Origin: a virus
Direction: 5' to 3' (one strand)
IMG/VR virus record: IMGVR_UViG_3300006880_000029
Span: 1 to 42,975 of that record
DNA: 42,975 nt
In this document: in pieces, positions 2,189-34,451 of the stretch
Position numbering within the stretch: the stretch's first letter is position 1
How the letters are laid out: the number at the start of each line of letters is the position of its first letter
Notes under the pieces: model-generated
Databases searched by the model: none
Told to the model about the DNA's origin: nothing
The model's input: only the letters and a program-made list of their open reading frames with translations
Program-made: the position numbers and the translations under genes

Positions 2189-3376
2189 TCAACGATCGCG
2201 AATGAGCCACTCGCGTTCACCATCGGGTTTTCCGGTTCGCTCACCGAGGTTGCCATCCAGCGCGTTGCGCACCTGCGTGGCTATCCACCTGCCGCACTGG
2301 ACCGTGATACCCTTACCCCACGTCGCCTTCAGACTTCCCATGTGCCGCAGTGGCATGATGTTCCAGTTATCCGGAAATCCCATGACGCGTGCCGCCTCGC
2401 GATGTGTGATCGTGCGCGGTTCGTACGGATGGAGCACCGCGTCGAGAGCGGCACCCGTAATCACGCGTGCCGGCTTCTCTGGATCCCACCTAATAACGGT
2501 CGTGAAGCCCATGTGCCACTCGTTGGCCATGAGCTTGTCCTTCATACCGTTCCACGACGGCGGCAGGTAGCCAAACGTCTCGTAGCAGTGCTTCGCCATC
2601 TGTCCAATGTGCCAACCGGACGGCCAGCCACCGTCACGCTCGGCGAGTGCCATGAGGTCGAGCGCCCGACGAATCGGAACGCCGTCGCGCGACGCGTGGC
2701 CGTCGAACGTCGTGTTGACGCGCACGCCCTCGCGCTCTCCCCACCACGTCGCGGGTCGTCGGTAGGGCTGCTGCTGCCAGGTCAGCGCGTGTCCACGTAG
2801 ATCGTCCCAGATCTCACGCAGAATCGGCTTGCGCACACGCGGATACGTAACGCCGAACGGCACGCGCGACGCGACCCAGAAGTACCGTGGGCGACGAGCG
2901 GCGCCTCCCAGTTCGATCGCGTCCTGGAACACGTGGTACAGCTCGTACTTGAGGCCGGTGAGCTCCTCGAGCTTGGCGCGCAGCGCGGTCATCAACGAGC
3001 GGCCACCTGAGTACGCAAGACGCACAGATTCCATTACCACAATGGTTGGTCGAACGCGCGCCGCGTACTCCATCAGTGCCCACATGCACGCGTTGACCTT
3101 GGCGTCGATTCCTCGATGTCGCTGGTCGGTCATGGCAGAGAAGCCACTACACGGCGGGTTGGCTGCCACGAAGTCAATCTCACGCGGCGCGTGCCACGTG
3201 GTGTAGTCGCAGGCCTGCGACGTCCAGTTCTGGCCCAGTAGGTGTCGATTCACGAGGCAGTTTTTCATGCCGAACCCGCCCTGTTGCTCGACCTTGTGAA
3301 CGAGCTCGAAGCCGGCCTGCACCACTCCGAGGTCAAATCCACCGGCGAAGCTCTGACACGCGATGAATCGATACAC
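2189..3376 (-). CDS. DNA (cytosine-5-)methyltransferase
   Basis: 395 residues. It transfers a methyl group from S-adenosylmethionine to C5 of cytosine in DNA. Motif I is FAGGFDLG (residues 10-17), motif IV is NPPCSGFS with catalytic Cys76, motif VI is the variant VMESVRL (ESV rather than ENV), motif VIII is RRPRYFW, and the C-terminal HREAARVMGFP is the conserved motif IX/X region. The first half of the enzyme is complete and the target-recognition region follows. Start GTG has TAGGA upstream. No restriction endonuclease is adjacent, so it probably protects phage DNA or marks it. It sits downstream of the sugar and nucleotide cassette, which raises the question how it works with the possible modified cytosine proposed for this phage. 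Confidence 0.85.
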   Translation of the reverse strand: MYRFIACQSFAGGFDLGVVQAGFELVHKVEQQGGFGMKNCLVNRHLLGQNWTSQACDYTTWHAPREIDFVAANPPCSGFSAMTDQRHRGIDAKVNACMWALMEYAARVRPTIVVMESVRLAYSGGRSLMTALRAKLEELTGLKYELYHVFQDAIELGGAARRPRYFWVASRVPFGVTYPRVRKPILREIWDDLRGHALTWQQQPYRRPATWWGEREGVRVNTTFDGHASRDGVPIRRALDLMALAERDGGWPSGWHIGQMAKHCYETFGYLPPSWNGMKDKLMANEWHMGFTTVIRWDPEKPARVITGAALDAVLHPYEPRTITHREAARVMGFPDNWNIMPLRHMGSLKATWGKGITVQCGRWIATQVRNALDGNLGERTGKPDGEREWLIRDR

Positions 3377-3384
3377 CTAGAATC

Positions 3385-19777: not shown

Positions 19778-20041
19778 TTATCGCTCGTTCTTCGTGTCGT
19801 CCACGATCGCGGTTGGGTCGTGGTTTACGCCGAAGATGATGTCATTCATCTCAAGAATGCGATCACCGAGTTCGTGAAGCTGCGTGCCGAGCACGTACAC
19901 AGCTCGCGACGTGTCCCTGACCTGGCCGCCAGGAACCATGGTGTCAGCCACCGCATCGAGTGCGCGTGCCGCGTCGCGCCACGTGCGTTGAATGACGGCG
20001 ATTCGTTCGTCACGATGACGTCGCGCGGCATTCTCGTTCAC
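19778..20041 (-). CDS. Small hypothetical protein
   Basis: 87 residues, GTG start inside the end of the TROVE gene. Almost entirely helical, with an Arg/Ala-rich first half (ARRHRDERIAVIQRTWRDAARAL) and an acidic second half. Coupled to the Ro60 gene by overlap, so it is probably made with it. No known family. Confidence 0.55.
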   Translation of the reverse strand: MNENAARRHRDERIAVIQRTWRDAARALDAVADTMVPGGQVRDTSRAVYVLGTQLHELGDRILEMNDIIFGVNHDPTAIVDDTKNER

Positions 20042-21711
20042 ACGTCACCGGCCACGAAGTCGCTGAGCATGTTCGGCGTCGCCGAGTCGAAGCCGACCAC
20101 GTCGAGCGTGCGCGCGTCGGTGACGTCGCCGATCCTCGACCGCGTCGCGGTCATACCCACGACGCCGAGCGCTGCTGGAATACCCATCGACTGACGGTAG
20201 CGCGTCAGCGCCTCGTGCGGGTGAATCGTACCGGCCCACGTCTCGTTGTCGGTGTAGATGAAGAACGCGTCAAACTCGGCGCGACTCTGGAGCGCGCTCG
20301 TCATCGGCAGCGCGCAGTCCGTGCCGCCCCAGGACACGCCGCGCATGACGCGCAGCACGTCGTCGAGCCGCTGTCGTGGCGAGATGTTCAACGTGATGAT
20401 GCCGCGACGTCGAGGATCGCCACCGAAACCGAGACCCGATCCGGACGCCGAGGCGAACGCCACAACCTCGTACTCCGTCTCGACGTTGGCCGTCACGAGC
20501 GCCAGCGCGGCCGACGCCTCCATGCAGGTGATCGGCAGACTCGACACCTTCGTGTTCATCGACGGTGAGACGTCCAGCGCGAGACGCAGCCGCTGGCCGG
20601 TCGATCGCACGGCGCCGAACGCCGCGTAGAACGCGGTATCGAGCGCGTCCACGATCCGGCGCGACGGGATCCAGCGCGTCTCGCCACGCTCGCTGTGGCC
20701 CTGCGCGTACGTGCGCTGTGCCACGAGGACGTTGATCGGGTGTACGCGTCCGTTACGCAGCCGCTCGGCGTCAGTGAGCTGGTGCACGACCTCGTTGGTC
20801 CAACCGCCGGTCGCCGGCAGTAGTCCCAAGTTGGTGAGACGCGGAAGCTGCCGCAGCAGCGCGGTCTGCGGCAGACCACCCTCGAGGAACGCCTCCCACA
20901 CCGCGACCTGGTTCAGCGCCTGCGTCGGCAGTGCCTCCCACGGCAGGCCGTACGTCTTGACACAGTCGACCCAGTGACGCGCACCGCCGGCGCCCTGCGC
21001 GCGCACGAAGCCCTCGACGACGCGCAGCTCATCGTAACCGCTCGTCATTGCCAGCTCGTCCTGAGCAGTCACCTTGGCGTGATGACAGATCCAGTCAAAG
21101 AGCGCTCGTCGAACCAGGTCGTCCGCGGCGGCCTTGGGCTTCGCCAGGCGCAGCAGGTCACGGTGCGTCCAACCCTCGCGCTGCCGGTACTTCACGACCT
21201 GGTAAGCGAGACGACCGACCGGCTGCTTGAGGTACCAGTTCTCGATCGCTCGGTCGAGCACCCGACCGCGTCCACGGAACTGCTTCACGTAGGCATTGAA
21301 CTGCATGAGATGCGTGCCGGTGCGCGCCACCTGCGGCAGCGCCTCGGCCGCCGCGCGTCGCGTATCCACGTCGCCGTGAGCGATGGCGATGGCCAGCGCG
21401 AACAGGGCCGGCTGGTTGCGCGGCGCGCGCCCACCCTGCGAGATCGCGACGATCTCGGTCACGAGTGCGTGGCCGTCGGTTCGCGCCAGCTCCAGCACGA
21501 CCTGGGCGTTGTCCTTGGCCAGGTCGGGAGCGGTCGCGTAGTACGTGCCACCGTCGACACCGAGCGTCAGGAAGCGCCGCAGCCGCTGAAGTGGAGTCAC
21601 CTCGAACGTGAAACCACCCGCCGCGTTGCGCGTTTGCCGTGGATCGGCCGCCTCGGACTGCGGCGTCACGCGCGTCTGCACGGCGCGCAGTGGATCCGTG
21701 AATCCCTTCAT
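20038..21711 (-). CDS. rsr: Ro60/TROVE-domain RNA-binding protein (Rsr)
   Basis: 557 residues; ATG with a GAAGGAG-GTAGGA purine region upstream. The N-terminus DPRQTRNAAGGFTFEVTPLQRLRRFL is the classic TROVE start; the HEAT-repeat ring follows (TYYAT...; ALPQVARTGTHLMQFNAYV; LKQPVGRLAYQVVKYRQREG). The C-terminal von Willebrand A domain has DVSPSM (MIDAS), GGTDCALPM and FIYTDNET. Ro60 binds Y RNAs and misfolded small RNAs, and in bacteria it directs PNPase or takes part in stress and rRNA processing. A phage copy directly downstream of tRNA-like RNAs that resemble Y RNAs is the key context. Confidence 0.9.
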   Translation of the reverse strand: MKGFTDPLRAVQTRVTPQSEAADPRQTRNAAGGFTFEVTPLQRLRRFLTLGVDGGTYYATAPDLAKDNAQVVLELARTDGHALVTEIVAISQGGRAPRNQPALFALAIAIAHGDVDTRRAAAEALPQVARTGTHLMQFNAYVKQFRGRGRVLDRAIENWYLKQPVGRLAYQVVKYRQREGWTHRDLLRLAKPKAAADDLVRRALFDWICHHAKVTAQDELAMTSGYDELRVVEGFVRAQGAGGARHWVDCVKTYGLPWEALPTQALNQVAVWEAFLEGGLPQTALLRQLPRLTNLGLLPATGGWTNEVVHQLTDAERLRNGRVHPINVLVAQRTYAQGHSERGETRWIPSRRIVDALDTAFYAAFGAVRSTGQRLRLALDVSPSMNTKVSSLPITCMEASAALALVTANVETEYEVVAFASASGSGLGFGGDPRRRGIITLNISPRQRLDDVLRVMRGVSWGGTDCALPMTSALQSRAEFDAFFIYTDNETWAGTIHPHEALTRYRQSMGIPAALGVVGMTATRSRIGDVTDARTLDVVGFDSATPNMLSDFVAGDV

Positions 21712-21828
21712 TCCTACATCTCCTTCGTTCCGAAACGTGGGCCGCGAACGTGGTATGTGCCGATCGGGTATGTGTTTTCACCAATTGAAAGATAACCGAC
21801 CAACGAGCAGTTCGCGACCCACGTCGTG

Positions 21829-21986
21829 AGCCTTACGATGAGCGTGTGTCCGTCGTCGAATCAAGCGGCGCGCTAACCAACTGCGCCATCACCCGAAGCG
21901 AATTGCACCCCGCCGGGCGAGTAGGACTCGAACCTACGACCTCCGCCAACCAAAGATAATCGATCGACTTCAGCTCATCTTTAGCT
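21829..21986 (-). ncRNA. Permuted tRNA-like RNA, Pro(UGG)-like
   Basis: Order on the minus strand: leader with GATGAGC (21979-21973), loop TTTGGTT with UGG at 21952-21950, T arm GTAGG-TTCGAGT-CCTAC, 3' acceptor TCGCCCG (21920-21914), 18-base linker, 5' acceptor CGGGTGA (21895-21889), D arm GCGC...GCGC, CCGCT, trailer GCTCATC (21843-21837). Acceptor strands pair 7/7 (one G-U). CCGCT pairs with GGCGG across the break to form the anticodon stem. Leader and trailer pair in a 7-bp helix. The D arm and C1-G72 are typical of tRNA-Pro. Confidence 0.75.
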
Positions 21987-21996
21987 GTGAACACTG

Positions 21997-22116
21997 GGTG
22001 CGTGAACGTGTGAACGCAACTCGGAGTGCCACCCCGCGTGTGGCGTCCGTCGCCGGTTGAGGCGCTGGACAGGAATCGAACCTGCGATAACCGAGTCATC
22101 TTCAGTTCACGACACC
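21997..22116 (-). ncRNA. Permuted tRNA-like RNA lacking an anticodon arm (YrlA-like)
   Basis: Leader GGTG-T-CGTGAAC (22116-22105) pairs with trailer GTTCACG-CACC (22007-21997), 11 bp with one bulged base. Inside, CTCGG pairs with CCGAG. T arm GCAGG-TTCGATT-CCTGT and CCAGCGCC are followed by TCAACC and GGCGACGG; this acceptor-like helix has two mismatches. The D arm is GCCA...TGGC. There is no room for an anticodon arm, so this unit looks more like a Y-RNA tRNA mimic than a tRNA. Confidence 0.6.
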
Positions 22117-22146
22117 TCGTGCTTCCCCTGCCTAGGGAATCTTACC

Positions 22147-22293
22147 GAGTGATCCGCTGAGCGTGCAAGTGCTTTCGGCGTTTAGGCGCTCTCGGCCGCT
22201 GAGCTACGAGCCTCGGAAGGCTCGGTGGGATTTGAACCCACGTCTCTCCATTTGCAGTGGATAACCGATCGCGGTCAGCTCCACGGATCACTC
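22147..22293 (-). ncRNA. Permuted tRNA-like RNA, Cys(GCA)-like
   Basis: Leader (from 22293) and trailer (to 22147) form a helix of about 16 bp with one G-U and one mismatch, incl. GAGTGATCC/GGATCACTC. Next come TCGG/CCGA, an anticodon hairpin CCA-CTGCAAA-TGG (GCA at 22255-22253), T arm GTGGG-TTCAAAT-CCCAC, 3' acceptor CGAGCCT (22224-22218), tetraloop TCCG, 5' acceptor AGGCTCG (22213-22207) and D arm GCTC...GAGC. Acceptor strands pair 7/7. The linker is a UNCG-type tetraloop, which suggests a stable capped stem. Confidence 0.8.
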
Positions 22294-22307
22294 TTAAGTT
22301 GTTACGC

Positions 22308-22452
22308 GTAAGACGCTGAGCGTGTGAGTGCTTTCGGGTTTTAGCGCTCTGCCAGTTGAGCTACGGGCCCAGGTGGTGGACCCGACAGGACTCGAACCTG
22401 CAACCTCTCCATTAGAAGTGGATAACCGATCGCGTTCAGCTCAGCTTCTCAC
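22308..22452 (-). ncRNA. Permuted tRNA-like RNA, Arg(UCU)-like
   Basis: Leader GTGAGAAGCTGAGC (22452-22439) pairs with trailer GCTCAGCGTCTTAC (22321-22308), 13 of 14 including a G-U. Then TCGG/CCGA, anticodon hairpin TCCA-CTTCTAA-TGGA (UCU at 22416-22414), T arm GCAGG-TTCGAGT-CCTGT, 3' acceptor CGGGTCC with ACCA encoded after it, 5' acceptor GGGCCCG (22370-22364) and D arm GCTC...GAGC. Acceptor strands pair 7/7 (one G-U). An encoded CCA inside the linker hints at a tRNA origin. Confidence 0.8.
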
Positions 22453-22624
22453 TCTTCAGTTGTGGCGACGAACGTGGTACGTGCGACGTCCGTCGGACTT
22501 CAGGTGCTCCCCTCCGGGAAGTTCCTAAAGATAAACGTCGTACATCAGTTCGCCGTTGTCGTTGTCGTCGCCAACGCTACGACGTCACCGCGCTGCGGCG
22601 ACGTCCGATGACGTCGATCTGACG

Positions 22625-22699
22625 CATCCTCCCAGGGATTCGAACCCCGAACCTTCACGTTCGTAGCGTGACGCTCTGTCCTGGTTGAGCTAGGAGGAT
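22625..22699 (-). tRNA. tRNA-Arg(ACG)
   Basis: Ordinary cloverleaf order, 75 bases without CCA. Acceptor ATCCTCC/GGAGGAT (7/7), D stem GCTC/GAGC, anticodon arm TCACG-CTACGAA-CGTGA, T arm CGGGG-TTCGAAT-CCCTG, discriminator G. It is not permuted and lies between permuted units, so both kinds are mixed in one cluster. Confidence 0.9.
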
Positions 22700-22703
22700 C
22701 AGC

Positions 22704-22734
22704 GGGAACCGGCGCTTAACCTGCGCCGGCTCCC
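22704..22734 (-). terminator. Strong GC-rich hairpin
   Basis: GGGAGCCGGCGC and GCGCCGGTTCCC form a 12-bp stem (one G-U) with a 7-base loop between a permuted unit and tRNA-Arg(ACG). No T tract follows, so it may be a processing or spacer element rather than a terminator. Confidence 0.45.
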
Positions 22735-22789
22735 CTAATAGGAGTGTTTGCATCTTGCGAGGATGCACATGTTTCCTCATCGTGATCCA

Positions 22790-23109
22790 GGTCGCGTGCA
22801 CCTTTAAGGATACCACCGAGCTTGAGGTAAGCGTTGTGCCTTGCCTTTAGGCCACACCGGCGTGGTAGCGGAGACCGGATTCGAACCGGTGACCTTCGGA
22901 TTATGAGCCCGACGCGCTGCCGAACTGCGCTACTCCGCGTTGGTGGGAGCCGAGCACCCGGATGGTATGCTCGGTTCCCGAGGTTCCTAACTCGTGATAA
23001 CCCACGCCAGTAGGCAACCAGAGTCGAGGGTGAAGGAACCCGTGCCGGTGGCTGGACTTGAACCAGCATCTCAACGTTCTAGGTGGTGTATCCCGTAGAT
23101 CACACGACC
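22790..23109 (-). ncRNA. Permuted tRNA-like RNA with a tRNA-Met inside its linker
   Basis: Leader GGTCGTGTG (23109-23101) pairs 9/9 with trailer CACGCGACC (22798-22790); GGATAC and CACC pair with GTATCC and GGTG further in. T arm GCTGG-TTCAAGT-CCAGC; 3' acceptor CACCGGC (23050-23044) pairs 7/7 with GCCGGTG (22861-22855), about 180 bases away. CGTTG (3' part) pairs with CAACG (22836-22832) as an anticodon stem. The anticodon itself cannot be called. The linker holds the complete tRNA-Met(CAT), ending one base before the 5' acceptor. Confidence 0.65.
22863..22939 (-). tRNA. tRNA-Met(CAT)
   Basis: 77 bases including encoded CCA. Acceptor GCGGAG/CTCCGC pairs from position 2; position 1-72 is C and T, an unpaired end. 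Anticodon arm TCGGG-CTCATAA-TCCGA, T arm ACCGG-TTCGAAT-CCGGT, D stem GCGC/GCGC. The open 1-72 pair is a feature of initiator tRNA, but three G-C pairs in the anticodon stem are missing, so I call it Met without stating elongator or initiator. Confidence 0.85.
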
Positions 23110-23128
23110 GCACGGTCTGGTTGAGCCT

Positions 23129-23335
23129 GTAGCGGATCAACGTAACCGTGATTCCGTCTGGTCTTGCCTCTGCCGATTGGGCTACCTCGACGTCGCGAGG
23201 AGGAAGGACCAACTTCCTCCCCGCTGGCCACAGCAACCAACGTCACGGTGTGACGTCGTGCCGAGGGTAGGACTCGAACCTACACCGGAGATCAGACGTA
23301 TGAACTTGTCAAGGATCAACTTCAGCTTGCGCTAC
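23129..23335 (-). ncRNA. Permuted tRNA-like RNA, first of the cluster
   Basis: The leader carries GCTGAAGTTGATC, nearly identical to that of the Pro-like unit. T arm GTAGG-TTCGAGT-CCTAC; 3' acceptor CCTCGGC (23266-23260) pairs 7/7 (one G-U) with GTCGAGG (23191-23185) after a ~70-base linker that forms two hairpins. The D arm GCC...GGC follows. CGTCTG (23298-23293) pairs with CAGACG (23160-23155), and GTAGCG with CGCTAC at the outside. No clear anticodon arm is seen; a CAT could lie in the loop. Confidence 0.6.
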
Positions 23336-23386: not shown

Positions 23387-24124
23387 CTAAGATCGTCCGA
23401 GAACGTAGTCCAGCAGGATCGACGCGGGCTTGGCCGGCACGACGTCGAGTAGGTTCGCCCGCTCGCGCGCCGTCTTCACGGCGTCGCGCAATTCCACGAC
23501 GCGCAGCAGAACGGCGCGCTTCTCGTCCGCCGGCAGCGCACCAGACAACTTCGTCGTGGTCCAGTAGCCACGCACCTCGCTGTCCTCGTAGCGTTCGACC
23601 TGCGCGGGGTGCTTGTCGGTCGCGGGGTACAGCACCAGCGCCTTCGGGACGCGCTTCTCGCGCGCGGTCTCGACCGGCGTCGACACGTACGTACCTCGGT
23701 TGCCGTCCCACGCCCACGTCTCGGCCGGGTCGAGCGACGGCATCTTGGTGACGAACGTGTACAGGTCCTCGAGAGCCTTCTCAAGGAACAGCAGGTAGGT
23801 CGACGGTACCTCCGATAGCAGCGTGACACCGTTCACGACGACGTCAGCCCGCGCCTCGGTGTTGGCGTACGTGACGGTCGCCTCGGTGTTCCAGCGCTCG
23901 AGCAGCAGTCGGTTCAGCTCGTCAAGAACGTCGGTCGCGCTCGTTCGCACCGAACGCGACTCGTCGGGAAACCTCTCGTCGTCGTCGCCGATCGGTCGGT
24001 ACGTGCGCGTGATGCCCACGTACAGGTCGATCTTCTGACTCTCACGGTGCAGCGCGGTCAGTGCGCCGTGCACCCGGGTCTTCGCGGCGCGCGCCAGCGC
24101 GACCGCCTCGCTCAATTTCGTCAC
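23387..24124 (-). CDS. Conserved hypothetical protein, helical
   Basis: 245 residues; GTG overlapping the preceding small gene stop (GTGA). Helical N-terminus (MTKLSEAVALARAAKTRVHG), a tract with IDLYVGITRTYRP, and a Thr-rich middle; the C-terminal ~60 residues look like a coiled coil (DEKRAVLLRVVELRDAVKTARERANLLD). It is the last protein gene before the RNA cluster and Ro60. I cannot name the family with confidence. A role in RNA handling is only suggested by position. Confidence 0.6.
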   Translation of the reverse strand: MTKLSEAVALARAAKTRVHGALTALHRESQKIDLYVGITRTYRPIGDDDERFPDESRSVRTSATDVLDELNRLLLERWNTEATVTYANTEARADVVVNGVTLLSEVPSTYLLFLEKALEDLYTFVTKMPSLDPAETWAWDGNRGTYVSTPVETAREKRVPKALVLYPATDKHPAQVERYEDSEVRGYWTTTKLSGALPADEKRAVLLRVVELRDAVKTARERANLLDVVPAKPASILLDYVLGRS

Positions 24125-29342: not shown

Positions 29343-29625
29343 CGCGATGATGACGACCGAGCGAGGGTTCGAAATTCACCGGCGCGCCGGACGCGTCCAG
29401 CCACACGCGGTGCGCCTCGCGCACGTCGGCCGCGACCTGCTCCAGCGCGGCCGCCGTCACCTCCGAGACCTCGTCCGCGACGCAGCGAAACGTGCCCACC
29501 GGGTACTCGGTCGGCGGCGCGGCGTCGTCGCCACCGTTGCCGATGCGAATCACGATCTCGCCGTACTTCAGCTGCGGTTGCGGTGGCGCGGTCAGCGCGT
29601 CACTCGGGTCGTTGAGAGTCGTCAT
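29332..29625 (-). CDS. Hypothetical protein
   Basis: 97 residues from ATG at 29625, preceded by GGAGG six bases away; an ATG two codons upstream is too near the site. KYGEIVIRIGNGGDDA starts a beta-rich part and the middle is helical and Ala-rich (EVTAAALEQVAADVREAHRV). Overlaps the nucleotidyltransferase-like gene by 26 bases. Unknown. Confidence 0.5.
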   Translation of the reverse strand: MTTLNDPSDALTAPPQPQLKYGEIVIRIGNGGDDAAPPTEYPVGTFRCVADEVSEVTAAALEQVAADVREAHRVWLDASGAPVNFEPSLGRHHRDDQ

Positions 29626-30439
29626 AATCATCCTCCGTAAAGAAACCGGTCGTCCACATGTACTCGTGTGCGTCGATCAGAAACGCACTCACGGCCGCGT
29701 GATCAGGTCGATCCGGGAGCGGCGAGCGACCGTTCGGACCAAGTAGTGCCTCGAGTTGAACCTCAAGATCGCGAGCGACGTCGAGAGCCTCCTTCATCGA
29801 GTGCTGACCTACCCGCAGTTCGCGCAGCCACTCGGCGTCCGACTCCCTCATTGGTAGCGTGAAGCGACCGGTGCGCAACAGCTCCACGCCCTGGAGGCCG
29901 AGACGCACCATGTGATGCGCAAACTTCGTGTCGAAGCCGTAGCGCTCGATCAGCTCCGGTCGGTTGGTCGCGCCGCCACGCTGACCGAGCAGCTTCTCGC
30001 GCTGCGACCGCATGTAGCCCAGAAACCGATGACCCGCCCGACGCGACAGCAGAAACTCCGGGGTGCGCCGCAGGCTCGCGCCGACGTCGTTCAGGTACAC
30101 GAGCTGCTCGCGCGCCACGAACAGCGGCACCAGGATCGACGGGTTGCCCTGGATCGCCAGGTGCGTCCACTTGCGCAGCGCGTACACCGTCAGGTCAACG
30201 TCACCCGGACCGGACCGGACGCCGGTCGGCTGCGTGCGCCACTCGTACTGGTCGAAGCGCTCCAGGCCGATCACGCAGTCCCGTGGTGGGACGCAGAGAC
30301 CCATCTCATCGCGGTCGTCCTGGTCGTCGATCGCGCAGCCGGTGACGGTCGAGCCGACGCGCGTGAGCAGCACCATGCCGCGTCGTGCCACGTCACGCGC
30401 GTGATTCGGTTCTTCACCCTGAAACGCGGGGTGTCTCAC
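29600..30439 (-). CDS. RlaP-like nucleotidyltransferase
   Basis: 279 residues. LLTRVGSTVTGCAIDDQDDRDEMGL holds the G-S motif and the Asp cluster of a DNA polymerase beta-type nucleotidyltransferase, and GDVDLTVYALRKWTHLAIQGNP is the third acidic strand and following helix, as in the RlaP family common in phages. A C-terminal helical domain follows. It would transfer a nucleotide to RNA or protein; the target is unknown. The start overlaps the previous stop (GTGA). Confidence 0.65.
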   Translation of the reverse strand: MRHPAFQGEEPNHARDVARRGMVLLTRVGSTVTGCAIDDQDDRDEMGLCVPPRDCVIGLERFDQYEWRTQPTGVRSGPGDVDLTVYALRKWTHLAIQGNPSILVPLFVAREQLVYLNDVGASLRRTPEFLLSRRAGHRFLGYMRSQREKLLGQRGGATNRPELIERYGFDTKFAHHMVRLGLQGVELLRTGRFTLPMRESDAEWLRELRVGQHSMKEALDVARDLEVQLEALLGPNGRSPLPDRPDHAAVSAFLIDAHEYMWTTGFFTEDDYDDSQRPE

Positions 30440-34025: not shown

Positions 34026-34026
34026 G

Positions 34027-34093
34027 AGCCCCGGCTGGGACTCGAACCCAGCCTCGTCGACCTGATCGGGATCGACGCGCGACCTCGCGGGGC
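34027..34093 (-). tRNA. tRNA-like element with a shrunken anticodon arm
   Basis: 67 bases in normal (not permuted) order: acceptor GCCCCG/CGGGGC (six pairs), D stem GGTC/GATC, T arm CTGGG-TTCGAGT-CCCAG. Between D and T arms only a small hairpin CGA-TCAGG-TCG fits; no 5-bp, 7-loop anticodon arm. Either a degenerate tRNA or a tRNA mimic. No anticodon is assigned. Confidence 0.4.
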
Positions 34094-34097
34094 GCGG

Positions 34098-34451
34098 CTA
34101 GCGCACGCCGCGCAGCGCGGCGTACAGCGCGACGGCCGCCACCAGTAGGCTAAGAATGACGGCGACGCGCTGCACCGGCGTCCAGCGGCGGTCCGACTCG
34201 CGCAGTCGCGACTCGCCGTCGGCGTGCAGCGCCGCGGCGGTCGACGCCGCCGAGGCTGCCTGACTGACCGCCTGATCGGCCAGCCGCTGCAGGTCCAGCT
34301 CCACCTGGGTCAGCGTCTGCGCGATGTCCGCGAGGTGCCCGTTGATCGCCGAGAAGTGCCGGTCGTGATCGGCGAGACGCGTCTCGATCGCACCGGCGGT
34401 GACGCCGCGCTCGTACTCGCCACGCACGCCGCTCTGGGCATCGCTGGACAC
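34098..34451 (-). CDS. Coiled-coil protein with C-terminal membrane anchor
   Basis: 117 residues from GTG at 34451. ETRLADHDRHFSAINGHLADIAQTLTQVELDLQRLADQ is a heptad-type helix, then Ala-rich AASAASTAAALHADGES and a final hydrophobic segment (VAVILSLLVAAVALYAAL). The shape resembles phage tail-anchored or hemolysin-XhlA-like proteins (helix plus C-terminal TM). Lysis function is a guess. Confidence 0.55.
   Translation of the reverse strand: MSSDAQSGVRGEYERGVTAGAIETRLADHDRHFSAINGHLADIAQTLTQVELDLQRLADQAVSQAASAASTAAALHADGESRLRESDRRWTPVQRVAVILSLLVAAVALYAALRGVR

What the first reader, a model, noticed from the sequence alone, without database searches (positions are those of the whole stretch)
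21829..23335. Cluster of six circularly permuted tRNA-like genes beside a phage Ro60
Seen: six units have T arm and 3' acceptor strand first and the matching 5' acceptor strand plus D arm afterwards. In the permuted reading five acceptor pairs match 7/7: CGGGTCC/GGGCCCG, CGAGCCT/AGGCTCG, TCGCCCG/CGGGTGA, CCTCGGC/GTCGAGG and CACCGGC/GCCGGTG; the sixth has two mismatches. In the linear reading they do not match, and the first 3' half and last 5' half would be left without partners. Known: permuted tRNA genes occur in some algae and archaea, and bacterial YrlA Y RNAs carry a tRNA-like module between paired ends. Inference: these are Y-RNA-type tRNA mimics for the Ro60 gene that follows, or phage permuted tRNAs. 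I know of no such array in a phage.
Basis: partly seen in the sequence, partly recalled or inferred. Interest (0 to 1): 0.95.

Follow-up and report, generated by a model that had tools for sequence, protein, structure and literature searches.

The report
Phage array of tRNA-mimicking Y RNAs
Just ahead of a bacterial virus's Ro60 gene lie about eight small RNA genes, six of them folded like transfer RNAs written in the wrong order; they are Y RNAs, the usual partners of Ro60, and some carry a complete tRNA cloverleaf including an anticodon loop, which suggests that the virus makes tRNA look-alikes during infection.

Summary
On the minus strand, upstream of a phage Ro60 gene (20038-21711), six units run T arm, 3' acceptor, loop, 5' acceptor, D arm; five acceptor pairs match 7/7 (1000 shuffles: at most three, mean 0.28). 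They are Ro60-partner Y RNAs, not genes for decoding tRNAs. A covariance model built from related Ro60 loci finds four units at E 9e-8 or better (one is a training sequence), a fifth and one short Y RNA without a tRNA module more weakly; a second short one is suggested. All seven helices of the model are supported.

The layout is YrlA-like, but the window scores far below Rfam's YrlA threshold. Two units here, and most relatives in phages and actinobacteria, hold all four tRNA arms, opened between D and anticodon stems. Rotated to normal order, 70 of 77 modules are called tRNAs. Their anticodon loops follow tRNA rules (U33; G36 with G37), yet the tRNA bodies do not match the anticodons and many acceptor ends are sealed by tetraloops, so decoding is unlikely.

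Such arrays are common beside actinophage Ro60 genes. Likely role: tethering Ro60 to a tRNA-binding partner; decoying tRNA-cleaving host nucleases is an attractive, untested alternative. New variant of a known kind.

The parts
20038..21711 (-). Ro60 (Rsr) protein gene, 557 aa, with TROVE and Ro60 vWA domains
   Evidence: Pfam TROVE E 2.5e-43, vWA_Ro60 E 1.4e-51; 340 phage records with relatives
21736..21823 (-). Y8: short Y RNA without tRNA module, directly upstream of Ro60; paired ends CGUGGGUCGCGAAC/GUUCGCGGCCCACG, GGUUAUC motif
   Evidence: R1 20.2 bits, E 9.6e-6 with filters off; fold z -3.1
21836..21982 (-). U6: Y RNA with permuted tRNA module; acceptor TCGCCCG/CGGGTGA 7/7, 18-nt acceptor loop, anticodon stem formed between the two strands (GGCGG/CCGCT)
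   Evidence: R1 55.7 bits, E 2.2e-15; Rfam YrlA 29.2 bits sub-threshold
22000..22114 (-). U5: Y RNA with reduced tRNA module, T arm directly after GGUUAUC, degenerate acceptor and D parts
   Evidence: R1 31.3 bits, E 8.5e-8; fold z -2.4
22147..22293 (-). U4: Y RNA with complete permuted tRNA cloverleaf; outer stem GAGUGAUCCGUGGAGC/GCUCAGCGGAUCACUC; acceptor CGAGCCU/AGGCUCG closed by UCCG tetraloop
   Evidence: R1 79.6 bits, E 8.3e-23, not in the training set; inverted repeat I2; fold z -4.1
22246..22262 (-). U4 anticodon arm, loop CUGCAAA (anticodon GCA)
22306..22454 (-). U3: Y RNA with complete permuted tRNA cloverleaf; outer stem GAGUGAGAAGCUGAGC/GCUCAGCGUCUUACGC; acceptor CGGGUCC/GGGCCCG 7/7
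   Evidence: R1 121.7 bits (training member); Rfam YrlA 36.2 bits, E 8.7e-6, sub-threshold; fold z -3.0
22407..22423 (-). U3 anticodon arm, loop CUUCUAA (anticodon UCU)
22371..22377 (-). U3 acceptor loop ACCACCU, which begins with discriminator A and CCA
   Evidence: sequence; NCCA starts the loop in 8 of 42 viral and 0 of 29 bacterial units
22464..22554 (-). Y7: probable short Y RNA without tRNA module (GGCGAAC.../...GUUCGUCGCC)
   Evidence: motif by inspection; fold z -3.25; R1 only 7.3 bits, E 0.1
22624..22699 (-). ordinary tRNA-Arg (ACG)
22808..22861 (-). U2 5' half: acceptor GCCGGUG, D arm, anticodon-stem strand CAACG, outer strand GGUGGUAUCC
   Evidence: 7/7 acceptor pair with 23044-23050 and 5/5 anticodon stem; no GGUUAUC motif; tentative
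22863..22939 (-). ordinary tRNA-Met (CAU), lying inside the acceptor loop of U2
23044..23094 (-). U2 3' half: outer strand GGGAUACACCACC, anticodon-stem strand CGUUG, T arm, acceptor CACCGGC
   Evidence: tentative
23166..23317 (-). U1: permuted unit, acceptor CCTCGGC/GTCGAGG 7/7 with a 68-nt loop
   Evidence: R1 15.6 bits, E 2.6e-4 in 1.7 kb
29600..30439 (-). RlaP-family RNA-repair nucleotidyltransferase (context, not part of the array)
   Evidence: Pfam PF10127 E 7.3e-24

Best explanation
The array encodes a set of Y RNAs, the noncoding partners of the phage Ro60 protein. Each is a linear RNA whose 5' and 3' ends pair into a stem bearing a conserved, presumed Ro60-binding motif (seen in U3-U6 and Y8; not in U1 and U2). 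Six carry at the far end a tRNA-like module in YrlA order (T arm, closed acceptor stem, D arm). In U3 and U4 the module is a complete four-arm cloverleaf with the Ro stem leaving between the D and anticodon stems. The modules imitate tRNA but are probably not meant to decode: in many units of the family the acceptor end is sealed by a stable loop, and the body does not match the anticodon. Most likely the Ro stem binds the phage Ro60 ring and the tRNA-like end recruits a tRNA-recognising partner (PNPase-type nuclease, tRNA enzyme or anticodon nuclease), so the phage has several Ro60 RNPs with different tRNA faces. Shown by sequence: structure, covariation, linkage to Ro60. Inferred: transcription, Ro60 binding, partner.
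For: R1 model hits for U4, U6 and U5 (E 8e-23 to 9e-8) and for U1 and Y8. Structure on 17 units: 95.1% of cells paired against 76% shuffled and 33-46% slid; 24 of 34 pairs with two-sided changes; the outer stem changes on both sides at all 6 pairs. Units lie just upstream and on the strand of Ro60 in most viral Ro60 loci and nearly all bacterial Ro60 loci searched. Rfam YrlA aligns to U3, U4 and U6 in the same order, E 9e-6 to 9e-4. Non-decoding: UNCG/GNRA acceptor loops in 14/42 viral and 9/29 bacterial units; nearest-body isotype equals anticodon isotype in 4/67, expected 3.0, whereas real tRNAs recover 50/98. YrlA: basal stem binds Rsr and the tRNA-like domain is reported to bind PNPase (PMC8394870).
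Against: No RNA or binding data. Viral units start their acceptor loop with NCCA far more often than chance (8/42, bacterial 0/29), and their anticodon triplets are all real bacterial ones (0/39 exceptions, expected 5.6), which would also fit tRNAs able to mature. U1 and U2 lack the GGUUAUC motif. U6's own minimum-energy fold does not show the cloverleaf.
Confidence: 0.82

Rival explanations
1. Decoys: the Y RNAs present anticodon arms to host tRNA-cleaving defence or toxin nucleases (VapC, PrrC-like) on a Ro60-protected scaffold, absorbing or blocking them. This is a sub-hypothesis about the partner, compatible with the Y RNA identity.
For: Anticodon loops obey tRNA rules: U33 in 44/45, G36 goes with G37 in 11/12 against 1/27 (P 8e-8), all viral triplets are genuine anticodons, with 24 different anticodons and no match to the body. 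The phage also carries RlaP, predicted to restore nucleotides lost from cleaved tRNAs (PMC7824862). Phage tRNAs are argued to counter anticodon nucleases in mycobacteria (PMC10264068), and competitive inhibition of an anticodon nuclease by YrlA has been suggested (PMC7790460).
Against: Bacterial chromosomal Y RNAs have the same arm, so it is not phage-specific. Salmonella YrlA was not cleaved by the nuclease tested (PMC7790460), though a decoy need not be. No host nuclease is known for this phage. U5, U6, Y7 and Y8 lack an in-line anticodon arm.
Confidence: 0.25
2. True permuted tRNA genes: the acceptor loop is cut by RNase P and a 3' nuclease and the ends at position 26/27 are joined, giving charged tRNAs.
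For: 70 of 77 rotated modules are called tRNAs by ARAGORN, 0 of 385 shuffles; NCCA starts the acceptor loop in 8/42 viral units, U3 included.
Against: Many acceptor ends are short tetraloops with no room for CCA; bodies do not match anticodons; Ser and Leu anticodons sit on bodies with short variable loops; two bacterial units have a UCA (stop) anticodon. No bulge-helix-bulge is apparent and no ligase was found in the ORFs scanned.
Confidence: 0.06
3. Decayed or recombined ordinary tRNA genes: adjacent tRNAs truncated and rearranged, with permuted pairing a by-product.
For: Two ordinary tRNAs sit in the array; U5 and U2 look degenerate.
Against: Covarying seven-helix structure across many lineages, including the outer stem that no tRNA has; same layout at viral and bacterial Ro60 loci.
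Confidence: 0.02
4. Linear tRNA genes with introns, as Rfam's hit 22370-22217 implies.
For: Rfam tRNA 38.2 bits.
Against: Joins halves of two units across a long insertion; acceptor pairs only 6/7 against 7/7 in the permuted reading; the first 3' half and last 5' half are left without partners; U3 and U4 are separate units under R1.
Confidence: 0.01

Closest known systems
YrlA Y RNA (Rfam RF02553; Salmonella, read through PMC8394870 and PMC7790460)
   Same: Permuted order T arm, closed acceptor stem, D arm; paired ends forming a Ro-binding stem; encoded beside Ro60/Rsr
   Different: Window units score 29-36 bits against a gathering score of 69, and none of 14 related Ro60 loci reaches it. U3, U4 and most relatives add a complete anticodon arm in line, which the Rfam consensus lacks. 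Six tRNA-like units and two short Y RNAs at one locus.
Classical short Y RNAs (metazoan and Deinococcus type; comparison from memory)
   Same: Y8 and probably Y7: terminal stem plus GGUUAUC-containing loop, no tRNA module
   Different: Interspersed with tRNA-mimicking Y RNAs in a phage array; sequence similarity to metazoan Y RNAs not tested
Permuted tRNA genes of algae and archaea (from memory)
   Same: 3' half encoded before 5' half; full set of tRNA arms
   Different: Outer Ro-type stem, acceptor often sealed by tetraloops, no evident bulge-helix-bulge, body and anticodon identity do not agree
Permuted tmRNA (Rfam RF04321)
   Same: T arm and 3' acceptor precede the 5' acceptor; weak local match, 21.7 bits, below threshold
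   Different: No tag reading frame considered or seen; unit structure is that of a Y RNA

Membership tests
YrlA / tRNA-mimicking bacterial Y RNA | Order T arm - closed acceptor stem - D arm | tested here: met
YrlA / tRNA-mimicking bacterial Y RNA | 5' and 3' ends paired in a basal stem with a conserved Ro-side motif | tested here: met
   covariation at all 6 outer pairs in the family; U3, U4, U5, U6 and Y8 in the window; not seen for U1 and U2
YrlA / tRNA-mimicking bacterial Y RNA | Gene next to Ro60/Rsr | tested here: met
Rfam RF02553 as a model | Score at or above gathering (69 bits) | tested here: not met
   36.2, 29.9 and 29.2 bits; no hit in 14 related loci
Rfam RF02553 as a model | Stem leading to the Ro module stands where the anticodon stem would be; no anticodon arm | tested here: not met
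   U3 and U4 have a complete in-line anticodon arm; U6 and U2 do follow the YrlA layout
Y RNA (functional definition) | Bound by Ro60 | not testable with these tools
   needs pull-down or gel shift
YrlA | D and pseudouridine in the D and T loops; partner exoribonuclease | not testable with these tools
   needs RNA from infected cells
Permuted tRNA gene | Body identity consistent with anticodon | tested here: not met
   4/67 matches, expected 3.0; real tRNAs 50/98; the reference set was small and included some Y RNAs miscalled as tRNA
Permuted tRNA gene | Acceptor end can be opened and carry CCA | tested here: inconclusive
   tetraloop-sealed in 14/42 viral units, but NCCA encoded in 8/42 including U3
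Permuted tRNA gene | Mature tRNA product | not testable with these tools
   needs RNA sequencing

The most novel reading that the evidence does not exclude
Actinobacterial phages carry banks of Ro60-bound Y RNAs, each displaying a different complete anticodon arm on a permuted, non-chargeable tRNA body, as decoys or tethers against host tRNA-cleaving nucleases: a multi-target RNA counter-defence working with RNA repair (RlaP).
Probability: 0.22. Interest if true: 0.88.

Novelty: new variant of a known kind. Interest (0 to 1): 0.62.

Why it matters
Phage Ro60 genes are common (340 records) but I found no described function for them. The arrays show that viral Ro60 usually comes with several Y RNAs, and that the actinobacterial kind mimics a whole tRNA, anticodon loop included, rather than three arms. 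This gives a concrete, testable route to what phage Ro60 does, and warns that standard annotation misreads these genes: a Y RNA in the M. abscessus prophage prophiGD43A-5 is annotated as tRNA-Thr, and none of the Y RNAs in the 14 Ro60 loci tested reaches Rfam's YrlA threshold. Caveat: the primary YrlA papers (Chen 2014, Wang 2018, Sim and Wolin 2018) were not readable here, so an earlier description of the anticodon arm or of arrays cannot be excluded.

Tried and rejected
Linear tRNAs with introns (Rfam hit 22370-22217): rejected, joins halves of two units. Decoding tRNAs: I first thought bodies matched anticodons (U3 resembles tRNA-Arg, U4 tRNA-Cys), but the family-wide test gave 4/67 against 3.0 expected. 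Rfam evalue-mode hits to HPnc0260, group II intron, Plastid-ycf2 and others: below threshold, chance. A MAFFT alignment of 56 units (A2) put anticodon gaps out of register and was not used for the model. Single-protein search of viral contigs gave one relative; the alignment search gave 80. Promoter scan: none found (sigma-70 consensus only). Papers on YrlA (PMC4201824, PMC6047535, PMC6281776, PMC3646564) and NAR gkw722 are not held. R1 also joined tRNA-Met to the 5' half of U2 (39 bits); read as cross-match to a real tRNA, not as a unit. The A3 units were chosen for having at least 3 anticodon-stem pairs, so helix 4 is partly selected; the unselected register test covers that.

Full report
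What is there. The array is on the minus strand between a DUF7873 gene (23387-24124) and a Ro60 gene (20038-21711; Pfam TROVE 2.5e-43, vWA_Ro60 1.4e-51). The window is a 42975-base virus record held as such. In transcription order: U1, U2 (with a tRNA-Met gene inside its acceptor loop), tRNA-Arg, Y7, U3, U4, U5, U6, Y8, Ro60. In the array ARAGORN sees only the two ordinary tRNAs; Rfam adds one spurious linear join.

The permuted reading is real. Five of eight T arms have a 7/7 acceptor partner downstream followed by a D arm. Shuffling the downstream sequence gave none in 747 of 1000 trials and never more than three. Units 1 and 2 depend on long linkers and are weaker; U1 is also found by an independent model and U2 has a 5/5 anticodon stem. 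U2 lacks the GGUUAUC motif and stays tentative.

Related loci. The Ro60 protein matches 340 annotated phage records. An alignment search fetched 80 viral loci and 80 bacterial ones. A plain scanner found permuted units mostly in the last 1.1 kb before Ro60 and on its strand, with 0.013 per locus in shuffled sequence. Their flanks share GGGCCGGA...UCGGUUAUC on the 5' side and AACCCGG...ACACGCCC on the 3' side.

Structure. Seventeen units with near-identical spacing were aligned and a structure of 34 pairs in seven helices tested: 95.1% of cells pair (shuffled 76%, slid 33-46%), 24 pairs change on both sides, covariation score 0.565 against 0.207. The outer (Ro) stem and the acceptor stem change on both sides at every pair. 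The resulting model R1 finds U3 (training member), U4 (E 8e-23), U6 (2e-15) and U5 (9e-8) in the window and, without filters, Y8 (1e-5), U1 (3e-4) and weakly Y7 (0.1). Among loci with a top-150 match, 56 of 61 viral ones hold one to six units in the 1.6 kb before Ro60, and bacterial ones mostly one or two, up to four. L039, a viral locus, is the richest; the full hit list puts seven units there.

The anticodon arm. Between GGUUAUC and the T arm most units have a 3-5 bp hairpin with a 7-nt loop. Of 63 viral units with room for it, 45 form at least three contiguous pairs (shuffled 19%); 44 of 45 have U33, 39 A38, 40 a purine at 37; 24 anticodons occur. At fixed spacing without selection, the expected register stands out (12 of 21 with all four pairs against at most 3 elsewhere). 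Rotated into normal order, 70 of 77 modules are called tRNAs and 0 of 385 shuffles are. In viral units G36 goes with G37 in 11/12 against 1/27 elsewhere (P 8e-8), and no triplet is outside the bacterial set (expected 5.6, P 0.002). So these loops follow the grammar of real anticodon loops. Rfam's YrlA consensus has no such arm, and a review describes YrlA as similar to D, T and acceptor arms (PMC8394870). U6, U2 and several relatives instead split the anticodon stem between the two strands, as in YrlA.

Not decoding tRNAs. About a third of units close the acceptor with UNCG or GNRA loops. Body isotype matches anticodon no more than by chance, while real tRNAs recover their isotype half the time (the reference set was small and contained some miscalled Y RNAs). 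Several units carry Ser or Leu anticodons without the long variable arm. Against this, 8 of 42 viral units, U3 among them, begin the acceptor loop with NCCA, and no bacterial unit does. This may be a trace of recent origin from tRNA genes, or a sign that some can be opened.

Function. For YrlA the basal stem binds Rsr and the tRNA-like part is reported to bind PNPase (PMC8394870). By analogy each RNA here gives phage Ro60 one tRNA-like face; this step is inferred. A more specific idea is that the faces are read by anticodon nucleases. The phage encodes RlaP, predicted to restore nucleotides lost from cleaved tRNAs (PMC7824862), and the same family occurs in 486 phage records, among them several Ro60 phages such as Myrna and Sebata-like mycobacteriophages. 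Phage tRNAs in mycobacteria are argued to counter VapC-type nucleases (PMC10264068), and inhibition of an anticodon nuclease by YrlA has been proposed (PMC7790460). Against a phage-specific role, bacterial chromosomal Y RNAs carry the same arm.

Verdict. A real array of Y RNAs, ordinary in kind for actinophage Ro60 loci but little annotated; a variant of the tRNA-mimicking Y RNA with a complete cloverleaf. The Y RNA identity is well supported; what the tRNA faces bind is open.

Noticed in passing
window 29600-30439 (-): RlaP-family RNA-repair nucleotidyltransferase (PF10127, E 7.3e-24); relatives in 486 phage records, some of which also carry Ro60.
   Followed up: partly
window 22863-22939 within U2: An ordinary tRNA-Met gene lies inside the acceptor loop of permuted unit U2; its processing would cut the Y RNA open.
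   Followed up: no
L002:3247-3325: Annotated tRNA-Thr(tgt) of Mycobacterium phage prophiGD43A-5 is part of a Y RNA (R1 hit 3252-3383, 117 bits).
   Followed up: yes
L039:2874-3895: Viral locus with about seven consecutive Y RNA matches before Ro60, the longest array seen here.
   Followed up: partly
L008:6190-6528: Gordonia phage Sixama has Y RNA matches downstream of Ro60 inside a long tRNA array (110.9 and 59.9 bits).
   Followed up: no
L160-L172: Y RNA model matches occur beside Ro60 in non-actinobacterial genomes too (Chloroflexi, Armatimonadota, Rhodospirillaceae, Kofleriaceae).
   Followed up: no
window 34026-34121 (-): ARAGORN tRNA-Arg(gcg) call, 96 nt, not supported by Rfam; probably spurious.
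   Followed up: no
window 23387-24124 (-): DUF7873 protein directly upstream of the array (E 2.5e-80); whether it accompanies other Y RNA arrays was not checked.
   Followed up: no
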